From: Vibrio sp. 10N
GTDB taxonomy: Bacteria > Pseudomonadota > Gammaproteobacteria > Enterobacterales > Vibrionaceae
Direction of reading: 5' to 3'
Length of the DNA stretch: 64,000 bases
Assembly (NCBI RefSeq): GCF_036245475.1
Contig: NZ_BTPM01000001.1
Location: 248,001 to 312,000 of the forward strand
The position numbers were made by a program, and so were the translations under genes. The notes under the pieces are model-generated. The model was given only the letters and a program-made list of their open reading frames with translations. It made no database searches and was not told the DNA's origin. Positions 47,972-51,805 of this stretch are shown here, in pieces (position 1 is the first letter of the stretch; the number at the start of each line of letters is the position of its first letter).

Positions 47972-48517
47972 ATGTCTTTCAGCGATGACAATTTGATCTG
48001 GGTCGATCTAGAGATGACTGGACTGGATCCTGAGACACACAAAATCATCGAGATCGCGAGCATTGTGACCGATAGCGAGTTGAATATCTTGGCTGAAGGA
48101 CCGGTAATTGCCATCCATCAACCAGAAGCTGAACTAGCGAAAATGGATGATTGGTGCACGAATACCCATACAGCAAGCGGGCTGGTGGCACGTGTTCAAG
48201 CGAGTGAGCACAATGAAGAAAGTGCCATTCGTGAGACTATCGCGTTTTTGGAGAAGTGGGTGCCTAAGGGTAAGTCGCCTATTTGTGGTAATAGTATTGG
48301 TCAAGATCGCCGTTTCCTATACAAGCATATGCCGGAGCTAGAGCAATACTTCCACTATCGCTATGTCGATGTGAGCACGATTAAGGAACTGACTCGTCGC
48401 TGGAAACCGGAGGTTTTGGATGGTTTTTCTAAACAGGGCACGCACCTAGCTTTGGATGACATTCGTGAGTCGATTGCGGAACTCAAGTTCTATCGTGAAA
48501 CTATTTTCAAGATTTGA
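47972..48517 (+). CDS. orn: oligoribonuclease
   Basis: 181 aa DEDDh 3'-5' exonuclease that degrades the last 2-5 nt of RNA, chiefly dinucleotides including pGpG. Asp12 and Glu14 ([10 protein letters not shown]) begin the active site, and His/Asp near [10 protein letters not shown] close it. It is followed by the tRNA array, the same order as in E. coli. Confidence 0.98.
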
Positions 48518-48633
48518 TCGTTGAATACTTGTTAAAAACAAGGACTTTGGGTTGCGATAGGTGGAAAAGTATCGAAAAATTGTGTGCTTTTTCATCAAAC
48601 GAAAAAAAAGATCATTTTTTTACTGATAAGGAC

Positions 48634-48661
48634 TTGCATCACAAAAAAATGCTCTTATAAT
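48634..48661 (+). promoter_or_regulatory. promoter of the tRNA array
   Basis: TTGCAT (48634-48639), a 16-base spacer and a perfect TATAAT (48656-48661) are followed by the GC-rich discriminator TCGCAGCCC typical of stable-RNA promoters under stringent control. AT-rich DNA upstream (A and T runs at 48590-48621) could be an UP element or Fis region. Confidence 0.85.
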
Positions 48662-48694
48662 TCGCAGCCCTGAACAACGAAAGACGTTCATAAA

Positions 48695-48770
48695 GCGACA
48701 CTAGCTCAGTTGGTAGAGCGCAACCTTGCCAAGGTTGAGGTCACGAGTTCGAACCTCGTGTGTCGCTCCA
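48695..48770 (+). tRNA. glyV: tRNA-Gly (GCC), copy 1
   Basis: 76 nt with encoded CCA. Acceptor GCGACAC/GTGTCGC, anticodon loop TTGCCAA, intact T loop GTTCGA. Confidence 0.98.
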
Positions 48771-48812
48771 GTTTGAAAGTTCTCACGGTACTTAACGGTG
48801 ATACAATACGGA

Positions 48813-48889
<77 letters not shown>

Positions 48890-48919
48890 AATTTAATCAA
48901 TAGCGTTTGCTGTTGATAT

Positions 48920-48995
48920 GCGACACTAGCTCAGTTGGTAGAGCGCAACCTTGCCAAGGTTGAGGTCACGAGTTCGAACCTCGTGTGTCGCTCCA
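48920..48995 (+). tRNA. tRNA-Gly (GCC), copy 2
   Basis: Identical to copy 1; different spacer after it. Confidence 0.98.
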
Positions 48996-49037
48996 AATAG
49001 ATAGTCTTCATCGTACTCAACGGTGACACAATACGGA

Positions 49038-49114
<77 letters not shown>

Positions 49115-49144
49115 AATTTAATCAATAGCGTTTGCTGTTGATAT

Positions 49145-49220
49145 GCGACACTAGCTCAGTTGGTAGAGCGCAACCTTGCCAAGGTTGAGGTCACGAGTTC
49201 GAACCTCGTGTGTCGCTCCA
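49145..49220 (+). tRNA. tRNA-Gly (GCC), copy 3
   Basis: Identical to copy 1, in the second 450-bp unit. Confidence 0.98.
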
Positions 49221-49262
49221 GTTTGAAAGTTCTCACGGTACTTAACGGTGATACAATACGGA

Positions 49263-49339
<77 letters not shown>

Positions 49340-49369
49340 AATTTAATCAATAGCGTTTGCTGTTGATAT

Positions 49370-49445
49370 GCGACACTAGCTCAGTTGGTAGAGCGCAACC
49401 TTGCCAAGGTTGAGGTCACGAGTTCGAACCTCGTGTGTCGCTCCA
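49370..49445 (+). tRNA. tRNA-Gly (GCC), copy 4
   Basis: Identical to copy 1. Confidence 0.98.
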
Positions 49446-49487
49446 AATAGATAGTCTTCATCGTACTCAACGGTGACACAATACGGA

Positions 49488-49564
<77 letters not shown>

Positions 49565-49594
49565 AATTTAATCAATAGCGTTTGCTGTTGATAT

Positions 49595-49670
49595 GCGACA
49601 CTAGCTCAGTTGGTAGAGCGCAACCTTGCCAAGGTTGAGGTCACGAGTTCGAACCTCGTGTGTCGCTCCA
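49595..49670 (+). tRNA. tRNA-Gly (GCC), copy 5
   Basis: Identical gene; followed directly by another tRNA-Gly with no fMet between. Confidence 0.98.
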
Positions 49671-49707
49671 AATAAATAGTCTTCATCGTACTTAACGGTG
49701 ACAAAAT

Positions 49708-49783
49708 GCGACACTAGCTCAGTTGGTAGAGCGCAACCTTGCCAAGGTTGAGGTCACGAGTTCGAACCTCGTGTGTCGCTCCA
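49708..49783 (+). tRNA. tRNA-Gly (GCC), copy 6
   Basis: Identical gene; a degraded tRNA-Gly 3' fragment follows it. Confidence 0.98.
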
Positions 49784-49806
49784 AATTTAGGAAAGACGAA
49801 ACAGCA

Positions 49807-49845
49807 CACGAGGAACCTCGTGCCCTAGCTGGTCGCGTCGCTCCA
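49807..49845 (+). pseudogene. tRNA-Gly 3' fragment
   Basis: GAACCTCGTG (49813-49822) and GTCGCTCCA (49837-49845) match the T-arm 3' side and acceptor 3' end with CCA of the neighbouring tRNA-Gly, but about 14 extra bases lie between and no 5' half is present. CACGAGG-AA-CCTCGTG (49807-49822) still folds as a 7-bp hairpin. Confidence 0.75.
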
Positions 49846-49882
49846 ATTTTATAGCTCTCATTGTGCTTAACAGTGACAAAAT

Positions 49883-49958
49883 GCGACACTAGCTCAGTTG
49901 GTAGAGCGCAACCTTGCCAAGGTTGAGGTCACGAGTTCGAACCTCGTGTGTCGCTCCA
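49883..49958 (+). tRNA. tRNA-Gly (GCC), copy 7
   Basis: Identical gene, last intact copy of the array. Confidence 0.98.
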
Positions 49959-49995
49959 ATTTGATAGCTCTCATTGTGCTTAACAATGATAAAAT

Positions 49996-50085
49996 GCGAC
50001 ACTAGCTCAGTTGGTAGAGCGCAACCTTGACAAGGTTGAGGTCACGCCTTTCTCATGAAAATCGGGAACCTCGTGTGTCGCTCCA
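49996..50085 (+). pseudogene. aberrant tRNA-Gly-like gene, anticodon GAC, disrupted T arm
   Basis: The first ~50 bases equal tRNA-Gly except that the anticodon loop reads TTGACAA (GAC, a valine anticodon) instead of TTGCCAA. The T loop (GTTCGA) is replaced by about 20 unrelated bases (CCTTTCTCATGAAAATCGGG), giving 90 nt. The acceptor 3' strand and CCA are intact. Without a T loop it is unlikely to work in translation; it may be a pseudogene or a transcribed tRNA-like element. Confidence 0.8.
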
Positions 50086-50677
50086 TTTCTCCCCTGAAGT
50101 GGATAAAGACGCGGTCATCTCGAAGAGATAGCAAAGTTGAGAAACTTAGTCCCATCACCGCACGCTCTTTCCTAATGCTGAGAAGCATCACTCCCTAAAA
50201 TTTAAAGCCAAATCATCGTCGATATTGCAAAGTAACATCGTCGAATTTTTTGCTGTGTATTCTATTCTTTGCACACCGCCAAAGCAGCAGGCTATTGCCT
50301 TAGCTGAGGGTCAGTTACAGTTAAATTAACAGAGTTATCCACATTATCTTTTTGTGGATAAGTTGGTTGATAAATTGTTTTTGAACGAGTGTGAAGACTG
50401 AAACCTGAAAGATCTTTACATCAATATAGCGTTGCAATTCATTAGCAAAAATATCGTAAGTCATTGTTTTATATTGATTATGTTATTTTATTTTTACTTT
50501 TCACTTGACAGGTAAATGATCATCAAGTGACATTTATTTGATCCTGGTCATATATTCAATCTGTGTTTAACCTGATTTCTCAACGACTAACTGTCGATGA
50601 AAATGTAGTTTTTCCACAAATTCAGTTTTGGGATGTTAGTCAAGAAAATTAATTTGATTTTCTGAGTCCATGGGCGA
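50086..50677. other. AT-rich region between the tRNA array and queG, candidate datA-like locus
   Basis: No coding region is seen in these 592 bases. Near-consensus DnaA boxes are at 50098-50106 (minus, TTATCCACT), 50335-50343 (plus, perfect), 50353-50361 (minus, perfect) and 50610-50618 (plus, TTTTCCACA, which fits TTWTNCACA). Weaker matches are at 50267-50275 and 50562-50570. GATC sites occur near 50411, 50519 and 50539. In E. coli the DnaA-titrating datA locus lies in this gene neighbourhood, between the glyVXY tRNA genes and queG. Confidence 0.6.
50335..50361. promoter_or_regulatory. inverted pair of perfect DnaA boxes
   Basis: TTATCCACA at 50335-50343 and its reverse complement TGTGGATAA at 50353-50361 are separated by 9 bases. 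Both are the highest-affinity form of the box, arranged head to head. Confidence 0.75.
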
Positions 50678-51805
50678 CTAGGCGTCTCGGGGCAGACCCT
50701 TTTGGACAATGCGAATTAGGCGCTGGTTTTTAGTGCTTAATGTGCTACCCGTTGAGTTAGGCATTTGCTTCATTTGTTGTTCGAGCGCCCACTGGATGTG
50801 CTCATCAAGCAGCTCTGATTGCTTCTGAGCTCGCTCTAGGGCTTCGAGGTAACGTTGAGCAAACGGAGCATTACCTATCGCGATAATGATGTTGCGTTGC
50901 CATTGTTCATGGCCAATACGGCGAATCGCTGAGCCTTCCATATTTTTTAGGAACGTTGCTTCATCCCAATCGAGTAAAATACACAGATCAGTATCTTTGA
51001 ATGCTTGGCGTCTTTGAAAGTCAGCTTGTTGACCCAACTCAGCAAAACGGTTCCAAGGGCACACCAATTGGCAGTCATCACAACCATAAATGCGATTGCC
51101 TATTGCAGAACGAAGAGATTCGGGTATTACCCCTTTATATTCGATGGTGAGATAAGAGATACAGCGTCTTGCATCAATAACGCCATTTTCAAGAATAGCG
51201 CCCGTAGGACATGACGTGATGCATGCGGTGCATTTACCACATTGGTTCTCAACTGGGGAGTCGACAGGAAGCGGTAGATCGATAAACAGCTCACCGAGGA
51301 AAAACCAAGAGCCAGCGTCTTTATCGAGGAGTAGTGAATGTTTACCTGTCCAACCTAAACCAGCTTTTTCTGCAATGGGACGTTCAAGTACTGGTGCAGA
51401 GTCAACAAAAGGTCGATAGCCAAGTTCAGCGACTTCCTTTTCTATTCGTTGTCCCAGCTTCTTGAGTTTGTTACGGATAAGCTTGTGGTAATCGCGCCCT
51501 AAGGCGTAGCGACTGATATAACCAGCGTGTTGGTTCTCTAAGTTGGATGCAAATCCAGCCTCTTCAGGAAGATAGTCCATTCTCACGCTGATGATTCGAC
51601 AGGTGTTAGGGTGCAGTCTCTCTGGGTGAATACGCAGGTCTTGATGGGTTTCCATCCAAGCCATGTCACCGTGATAACCTGCTTCTAGCCACTGTTTAAG
51701 CTGCGCCTCTTGATCGAGAAGATCGATATCACTGATACCAGCCTTCTGGAAACCGAGTTCTTGCGCCCAAACTTTAATGTCGCTGGCAAGCTTGTTTAAG
51801 TCCAT
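50678..51805 (-). CDS. queG: epoxyqueuosine reductase QueG
   Basis: 375 aa from the ATG at 51805 (MDLNKLASDIKVWAQELGF); upstream in-frame codons would add 29 unrelated residues. It catalyses the last step of queuosine synthesis in tRNA, using cobalamin and two 4Fe-4S clusters. Cluster motifs are CGKCTACITSCP and CDDCQLVCP. HEAT-like helices form the C-terminus. In E. coli it is divergent from nnr; nnr is absent here and tsaE is next. Confidence 0.95.
   Translation of the reverse strand: MDLNKLASDIKVWAQELGFQKAGISDIDLLDQEAQLKQWLEAGYHGDMAWMETHQDLRIHPERLHPNTCRIISVRMDYLPEEAGFASNLENQHAGYISRYALGRDYHKLIRNKLKKLGQRIEKEVAELGYRPFVDSAPVLERPIAEKAGLGWTGKHSLLLDKDAGSWFFLGELFIDLPLPVDSPVENQCGKCTACITSCPTGAILENGVIDARRCISYLTIEYKGVIPESLRSAIGNRIYGCDDCQLVCPWNRFAELGQQADFQRRQAFKDTDLCILLDWDEATFLKNMEGSAIRRIGHEQWQRNIIIAIGNAPFAQRYLEALERAQKQSELLDEHIQWALEQQMKQMPNSTGSTLSTKNQRLIRIVQKGLPRDA

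What the first reader, a model, noticed from the sequence alone, without database searches (positions are those of the whole stretch)
50086..50677. Candidate datA-like DnaA titration locus beside the tRNA-Gly array
The gap has two perfect DnaA boxes in inverted orientation 9 bases apart, a TTWTNCACA match, a TTATCCACT match and two weaker ones within about 520 bp. It is AT-rich, has no gene and sits between tRNA-Gly genes and queG. In E. coli, datA (a multi-box DnaA reservoir that promotes DnaA-ATP hydrolysis with IHF) occupies this gene position. The boxes are seen directly; the function is inferred. I could not find a clear IHF consensus between the boxes, which is a weakness.
Basis: partly seen in the sequence, partly recalled or inferred. 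Interest (0 to 1): 0.82.

Follow-up and report, generated by a model that had tools for sequence, protein, structure and literature searches.

The report
Vibrio datA with equal-armed IHF hairpin
Between a glycine-tRNA cluster and the queG gene, this Vibrio-family bacterium carries a conserved DNA element that matches E. coli's datA in position and layout and likely shuts off the replication starter DnaA after each round of chromosome copying.

Summary
The gap holds three perfect DnaA boxes; 0.015% of shuffles reach three. Gene order matches E. coli datA. The window and all 31 Vibrionaceae loci fetched through QueG keep the inverted box pair and the queG-side box (boxes 2, 2b and 3 are 96-99% identical, spacers 29-39%). 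The pair occurs in 235 of 247 genomes of the family and in 1 of 272 others of the order. It lies near the midpoint of boxes 2 and 3: box2-box3 distance = 2 x (box2-IHF) + 31 bp in 48 of 79 Vibrionaceae loci (30-33 in 67) and in 21 of 24 Enterobacterales loci, although arm lengths differ about twofold; 11 of 79 give 22. Arm lengths change together on a tree more often than chance. This fits an IHF bend that brings DnaA on box 2 to DnaA on box 3. Differences from E. coli: longer arms, an inverted box 2b, extra GATC sites. DnaA binding, IHF binding and ATP hydrolysis are inferred, not shown.

The parts
50323..50331 (+). box 7-like weak DnaA site 12 bp upstream of box 2 (AAATTAACA, 3 mismatches here)
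   Evidence: 85 of 121 Vibrionaceae loci have 2 or fewer mismatches at this place, against 1.8% of other upstream positions
50335..50343 (+). DnaA box 2, TTATCCACA, preceded by ACAGAG as in E. coli datA box 2
   Evidence: perfect in 30 of 32 loci not chosen by the boxes
50353..50361 (-). DnaA box 2b, inverted partner of box 2, spacer 9 (9-10 in the family); absent from the 28 Enterobacterales loci aligned
50410..50415 (.). AGATCT, described as a six-base DnaA box bound as single strand in the E. coli origin (PMC4285127, passage); also a GATC site
   Evidence: recurrent position; passage
50457..50469 (-). candidate IHF site AAACAATGACTTA (consensus WATCARNNNNTTR, 1 mismatch), near the midpoint of box 2 and box 3
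50518..50521 (.). recurrent GATC, first of two 22 bp apart
   Evidence: a GATC at this place (+40 to +46 from the midpoint) in 55 of 121 loci
50540..50543 (.). recurrent GATC, second of the two
   Evidence: a GATC at this place (+60 to +68 from the midpoint) in 64 of 121 loci
50562..50570 (-). weak DnaA box TTAAACACA, 48 bp before box 3
   Evidence: TGTGNNTAA (plus strand) exactly 48 bp before box 3 in 113 of 121 loci (summed)
50610..50618 (+). DnaA box 3, TTTTCCACA, same direction as box 2
   Evidence: TTTTCCACA in 116 and TTGTCCACA in 5 of 121 loci
48695..49958 (+). tRNA-Gly/tRNA-Met array transcribed towards the element
50678..51805 (-). queG (start taken at the ATG at 51805), convergent with the tRNA array

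Best explanation
The gap is a Vibrionaceae version of the E. coli datA locus, with two same-direction DnaA boxes on either side of an IHF-like site, and it likely promotes hydrolysis of DnaA-bound ATP after initiation so that chromosome 1 would not refire early. Shown: gene position, box conservation, order and direction of the sites, and the matched distances from the IHF-like site to box 2 and to box 3. Predicted: IHF bends the DNA at that site, so the two arms lie side by side and DnaA nucleated at boxes 7 and 2 meets DnaA at box 3 in a fixed register; the contact triggers ATP hydrolysis (DDAH). The inverted box 2b, the AGATCT/GATC sites and the weak box at 50562 would add DnaA-binding capacity along the longer Vibrio arms. 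By analogy with E. coli, read-through from the upstream tRNA array may push IHF off and set the timing. Some plain DnaA titration would come with the binding in any case.
For: Synteny with E. coli datA. Shared 16-mer AACAGAGTTATCCACA at box 2 and a box 7-like site at the same distance. Boxes 2, 2b and 3 are 96-99% identical and the weak box 88%, spacers 29-39%, in the window plus 31 QueG-fetched loci (29 of these 32 for the box 3 side). Pattern in 235 of 247 family genomes and 1 of 272 others of the order. Of the 30 loci returned, all 22 with spacer 9-10 have queG beside them and none of the 8 others. IHF consensus with at most 1 mismatch at offset 122 (6-bp window) in 34 of 52 loci, against a maximum of 5 in 20 block-shuffled sets. 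D - 2A = 31 in 48 and 30-33 in 67 of the 79 loci with a unique site of at most 1 mismatch, and 31 in 21 of 24 such Enterobacterales loci. Both arms change in the same direction on 8 tree branches against 1.5 expected, p about 3e-6, after dropping one outlier. The genome's DnaA keeps Arg281, Arg285, Leu290 and Arg334, which PMC5742627 links to DDAH (passages). IhfA is encoded. The element is 306 kb from oriC, 8.7% of the chromosome-1 contig; E. coli 10.1%.
Against: No binding or activity data. The window's own IHF site has one mismatch (WAACAR for WATCAR), as do half of 52 loci at that base, and 16 of 52 loci have 2 mismatches. Hits with at most 1 mismatch occur about 1.3 times per 592 bp in the window by chance. 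Arm lengths (122/153) differ from E. coli (65/97), where interval lengths are reported to be optimised (PMC5742627). Box 7 has 3 mismatches in this genome. 11 of 79 loci give 22 instead of 31, and over all 79 loci the two arms correlate only at r = 0.42 because of them and one outlier. Ten of 19 tree branches with a change alter one arm only, by 1-2 bp, and only 4 of the both-arm changes are exactly equal. In two f11 genomes boxes 7, 2 and 3 are present but no IHF consensus lies at the predicted place, and one f5 genome has only a 2-mismatch site there.
Confidence: 0.75

Rival explanations
1. It is a passive DnaA sink: the boxes bind DnaA and lower the free pool near oriC, with no IHF-driven ATP hydrolysis.
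For: Cluster of high-affinity boxes near oriC; the review PMC5835720 holds that E. coli datA also titrates DnaA directly (passages).
Against: Titration needs no fixed geometry, yet box direction, the 9-10 bp pair spacing, the 48 bp spacing and the IHF-centred arm lengths are largely kept.
Confidence: 0.14
2. It is a DnaA-dependent transcription block between the convergent tRNA array and queG.
For: Convergent layout; no forward terminator-like site found in 48400-50900; DnaA and IHF at datA attenuate read-through in E. coli (PMC10950094, abstract and passages).
Against: A block would need one site, not matched arms; it may be a by-product of datA rather than an alternative.
Confidence: 0.06
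3. It is a DARS-type site that reactivates ADP-DnaA through the inverted pair.
For: Opposed DnaA boxes I and II are part of the DARS core (PMC8682772, passages).
Against: The opposed pairs at the E. coli bioD-uvrB and mutH sites, which I take as DARS1 and DARS2, have a 5-base spacer; this pair has 9-10. A pair of that DARS2 type with spacer 5 lies upstream of mutH in this genome.
Confidence: 0.03
4. The inverted pair is an RNA stem (terminator or processing signal) of the tRNA transcript.
For: 9-bp inverted repeat downstream of tRNAs.
Against: Pairing does not extend: the first outer position pairs in 23 of 121 loci against 50 expected, the first inner one in 41 against 52; no terminator-like site was found there; the repeat ends exactly at the DnaA box.
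Confidence: 0.02

Closest known systems
E. coli datA (DDAH locus, glyVXY-queG)
   Same: Gene position; convergent genes; box 7, box 2, IHF site, box 3 in the same order and direction; ACAGAG flank of box 2; IHF-site rule (D - 2A is 32 in MG1655, 31 in most Enterobacterales); roughly 8-10% of the chromosome from oriC
   Different: Arms 122/153 instead of 65/97 bp; extra inverted box 2b; AGATCT/GATC sites; weak box 48 bp before box 3; box 3 is TTTTCCACA instead of TTATTCACA; activity untested
DARS1 / DARS2 (DnaA-reactivating sequences)
   Same: Opposed pair of high-affinity DnaA boxes
   Different: Pair spacer 9-10 instead of 5; not at uvrB or mutH; this genome has its own spacer-5 pair upstream of mutH
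V. cholerae chr2 RctB-titrating sites (likened to datA in PMC3937223, passages)
   Same: Initiator-binding sites outside the origin
   Different: Other initiator (RctB), other chromosome; sequences not compared here
datA-analogous DnaA-box clusters of B. subtilis and S. coelicolor (mentioned in PMC5742627, passage)
   Same: Clusters of DnaA boxes that repress untimely initiation
   Different: Distant species, analogous by the review's wording; not compared here

Membership tests
datA | Intergenic position between tRNA-Gly operon and queG | tested here: met
datA | Two high-affinity boxes (2 and 3) in the same direction | tested here: met
datA | Low-affinity box 7 next to box 2, same direction | tested here: inconclusive
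   Met in the family (85 of 121 with at most 2 mismatches) but 3 mismatches in the window
datA | Single IHF site between box 2 and box 3 | tested here: inconclusive
   Positionally conserved in the family (34 of 52 with at most 1 mismatch in a 6-bp window); 1 mismatch in the window; binding not shown
datA | Spacing optimised around the IHF site | tested here: inconclusive
   Absolute spacing differs from E. coli; the midpoint rule is shared
datA | IHF-dependent DnaA-ATP hydrolysis; control of initiation timing | not testable with these tools
   Needs biochemistry and genetics; the DnaA residues linked to DDAH are kept
datA | Near oriC on the chromosome | tested here: met
   7.8-10.4% of the contig in 17 of 19 genomes, 13.5 and 15.0% in two, contigs taken as complete circles; a twentieth genome searched was not computed
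DARS | Opposed box pair with 5-base spacer | tested here: not met
   Spacer 9 here; 5 at both E. coli sites
DARS | Position at uvrB or mutH | tested here: not met
   The element is at queG; mutH is at C1:2842541

The most novel reading that the evidence does not exclude
datA is an equal-armed DNA hairpin: IHF must sit at a fixed point midway between box 2 and box 3, so that box2-box3 distance = 2 x (box2-IHF) + 31 bp. The arms can grow by some 57 bp each, as between E. coli and Vibrio, provided they grow together, and Vibrionaceae used the longer arms to add further DnaA sites.
Probability: 0.5. Interest if true: 0.8.

Novelty: new variant of a known kind. Interest (0 to 1): 0.66.

Why it matters
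In the papers whose passages I saw, DARS is reported in V. cholerae but no datA on Vibrio chromosome 1; the searches are limited, because the word datA cannot be told from 'data' in that library and the primary datA papers are not held. One review already calls regulation by datA-like clusters a conserved feature of most bacteria (PMC5742627, passage), so a datA in Vibrio is not a surprise in principle. What would be new is a family-wide orthologue with its own architecture, in two-chromosome bacteria, and a numerical arm rule. The rule turns the proposed contact of boxes 2 and 3 over an IHF bend into a test: add equal or unequal base numbers to the two arms.

Tried and rejected
RNA stem: flank and spacer pairing tested, rejected. 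DARS: spacer and position tested, rejected; I first looked for E. coli DARS1 in the wrong gap (uvrB-ybhK) and then found a spacer-5 pair in bioD-uvrB. Rfam: only tRNA above cut-off. The box at 50098: not conserved. The thought that the GATC block resembles oriC was raised by eye and left untested. The 8 loci with other spacers were not placed: none matched E. coli RppH or MutH, but the uvrB query of that call was out of frame and so tests nothing. GATC mirror symmetry about the midpoint is an observation without a phylogenetic test.

Other families: of 109 genomes of the order, 74 had a QueG match. Of 50 loci or stretches then examined, 38 could be read past the end of queG and 12 could not. 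ACAGAnTTATCCACA was found in 11 of the 38: 6 Vibrionaceae (the window among them), 2 of family f19, 2 of f11, 1 of f5. Testing the arm rule there: of two f19 loci one has a perfect site at 65 and one a 2-mismatch site; f5 has a 2-mismatch site at 65; the f11 loci have none. In one search, queG of Psychromonas, Pseudoalteromonas, Alteromonas and a Shewanella locus has no tRNA within about 4 kb; two Rheinheimera loci keep one tRNA-Gly but no perfect box.

Selection and dropped rows: the 28 Enterobacterales loci were chosen by having TTATCCACA and a box 3-like site 155-175 bp on. Box 3 was sought at 245-300 and the IHF site at 105-140 bp from box 2 in Vibrionaceae. Duplicates L084 and L100 were dropped, as were repeated cores (121 distinct of 130). 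42 of 121 loci without a unique IHF match of at most 1 mismatch are outside the 79; the tree uses 57 loci by the same criterion. In one search ties were broken towards the expected offset (122, or 65 in Enterobacterales); one search drops ties. Loci L082-L111 and L121-L198 were found through the exact box pair, so they are not used as evidence for boxes 2 and 2b, only for box 3, box 7 and the IHF site. A correlation over 14 distinct arm combinations (r = 0.89) was made on a hand-typed list without the 22 class and the outlier. The E. coli box numbers were assigned by me by matching PMC5742627 (section read) and PMC5835720 (passages) to the sequence; box 7 to box 3 then spans 183 bp, as published.

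Full report
What is there. The gap 50086-50677 lies between a tRNA-Gly/tRNA-Met array and queG, which is on the other strand, so the two transcription units converge. No ORF of 50 aa or more lies in it. It holds TTATCCACA at 50335 (+) and 50353 (-), TTTTCCACA at 50610 (+), TTAAACACA at 50562 (-) and TTATCCACT at 50098 (-). Three perfect boxes in a gap of this composition are reached in 0.015% of 20,000 shuffles.

Same place as E. coli datA. In MG1655 the order is rsgA-orn-glyVXY-gap-queG-nnr-tsaE-amiB. The window reads rsgA-orn-tRNAs-gap-queG-tsaE-amiB; orn and queG were checked by tblastn, the other names are my reading of the ORFs. Box 2 and its flank share AACAGAGTTATCCACA with E. coli. In the E. 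coli gap the two perfect boxes lie at 86 and 248 and a 2-mismatch site at 74. This fits the published minimal datA of 183 bp with box 7, box 2, IHF site and box 3, all boxes in one direction (PMC5742627, section 12 read; PMC5835720, passages).

Conservation. QueG was used to fetch the best 80 loci of a capped list; 31 carry Vibrionaceae names. All 31 and the window have the inverted pair with a 9-10 base spacer, allowing one-base variants: box 2 is TTATCCACA in 30 of 32; box 2b is TGTGGATAA in 24 and TGTGGGTAA in 8. Mean pairwise identity is 0.99 for box 2, 0.96 for box 2b, 0.99 for box 3 and 0.88 for the weak box 48 bp before it (the last two over 29 loci), against 0.29 upstream, 0.34 in the pair spacer and 0.36-0.39 around box 3. 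A genome search finds the pair in 235 of 247 genomes of the window's family; the 12 without it include two genomes of about 1 Mb. Outside the family it is found in 1 of 272 genomes of the order. All 78 further loci have a box 3 at 245-300 bp.

The IHF site. On the minus strand at 50457 there is AAACAATGACTTA, one mismatch from WATCARNNNNTTR. Alone this means little, since such hits occur about 1.3 times per 592 bp in the window. Across 52 distinct loci, however, 34 have a hit with at most one mismatch in the same 6-bp window on the same strand, and 20 block-shuffled sets never exceed 5 anywhere. Taking the best site near that offset, 10 loci have no mismatch, 26 one and 16 two. The bases upstream of the core are A-rich, as IHF sites often are (recalled). 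In E. coli the site is TATCAATAGGTTA, on the same strand, 65 bp from box 2.

The arm rule. Let A be the distance from box 2 to the IHF site and D that from box 2 to box 3. In 28 Enterobacterales loci A is 64-66 and D 159-163; in Vibrionaceae A is mostly 120-125 and D 262-281. Yet D - 2A is 31 in 21 of the 24 Enterobacterales loci with at most one mismatch, 32 in two and 30 in one. In Vibrionaceae, of 79 loci with a unique site of at most one mismatch, 48 give 31, 9 give 30, 8 give 32, 2 give 33, 11 give 22 and 1 gives 53. Permuting the right arms among loci gives 31 in 17% on average and at most 34% in 5000 trials, against 61% observed; the plain correlation of the arms is only 0.42, pulled down by the 22 class and the outlier. 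Relatedness inflates such counts, so I mapped the arms on a QueG tree of 57 loci. Of 19 branches with a change, 9 alter both arms. One of these (L006) goes in opposite directions and is likely a mis-called site, since a 2-mismatch site lies at the expected offset. Without it 8 remain where 1.5 are expected, p about 3e-6, all in the same direction and 4 of them exactly equal; 10 branches alter one arm only, by 1-2 bp. The rule is thus a strong tendency, not an absolute. Three of the 22-class loci bear the names V. splendidus or V. tasmaniensis; the other 8 are unnamed and share D = 262. Their right arm is about one helical turn shorter.

Interpretation. A protein sink needs no geometry. A bend that brings two ends together does: box 2 and box 3 must lie at matched distances from the bend. 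This agrees with the published model that IHF bending lets DnaA on boxes 2 and 3 touch (PMC5742627, Figure 6 legend). The DnaA of this genome is 84% identical to that of E. coli, 97% in the DNA-binding domain, and keeps the four residues linked to DDAH. IhfA is encoded; IhfB was not sought by its own model. Upstream transcription may run into the element: no forward terminator-like site was found, and in E. coli read-through from glyVXY regulates IHF at datA (PMC10950094, abstract and passages).

What differs from E. coli. The arms are about 57 bp longer on each side. Box 2b is additional. Between box 2 and box 3 GATC occurs 2.5 times per locus against 0.67 expected, at recurrent places that are near-mirrored about the midpoint. 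AGATCT recurs among them; it is described as a six-base DnaA box bound as single strand in the E. coli origin (PMC4285127, passage). Whether these sites serve DnaA, Dam/SeqA or neither is open.

Not a DARS. The opposed pairs at the E. coli bioD-uvrB and mutH sites, which I take as DARS1 and DARS2, are 5 bases apart. This genome has a spacer-5 pair upstream of mutH, and the literature notes DARS-like sequences in V. cholerae (PMC6090056; PMC8682772; passages). The present pair has 9-10 bases.

Position. In 19 family genomes with oriC and the element on one contig, the distance is 7.8-10.4% of the contig in 17 and 13.5 and 15.0% in two, taking contigs as complete circles; a twentieth genome searched (G085) was not computed. 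E. coli has 10.1%.

Limits. Nothing here shows binding or activity. In two f11 genomes the boxes are present without a recognisable IHF site at the predicted place. The literature statement rests on the searches in an open-licence library, on listings for most papers and passages for eleven; the two primary datA papers asked for were not held.

Noticed in passing
window 48695-49958: Four tRNA-Gly/tRNA-Met units spaced 225 bp followed by three further tRNA-Gly genes: a tandem amplification.
   Followed up: no
window 49996-50082 and about 49798-49850: A degenerate tRNA-Gly copy (Rfam tRNA 44.7 bits, not called by ARAGORN) and, by eye, a fragment of another, next to the element.
   Followed up: partly
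L237 position 779 (G000 C1 about 2842078): Opposed DnaA boxes with 5-base spacer upstream of mutH in the same genome, like E. coli DARS2.
   Followed up: partly
L116 1501-1523 (G000 C1:1251706): Second inverted TTATCCACA pair of the genome, spacer 5, between two membrane-transporter-like ORFs (by eye); possibly a DARS-type site at another place.
   Followed up: partly
L005, L007, L009 and unnamed loci with D = 262: Right arm about 9-11 bp shorter than the rule demands, near one helical turn.
   Followed up: partly
L082 and L086-L093: AGATCT on both arms at nearly mirrored places about the IHF midpoint.
   Followed up: partly
L053, L057, L079 (Pectobacterium, Brenneria, Limnobaculum): Box 2 and box 3 are kept beside queG although no tRNA lies within about 4 kb.
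   Followed up: no
121 Vibrionaceae loci: The bases just outside box 2 and box 2b pair less often than chance (23 against 50 of 121).
   Followed up: no
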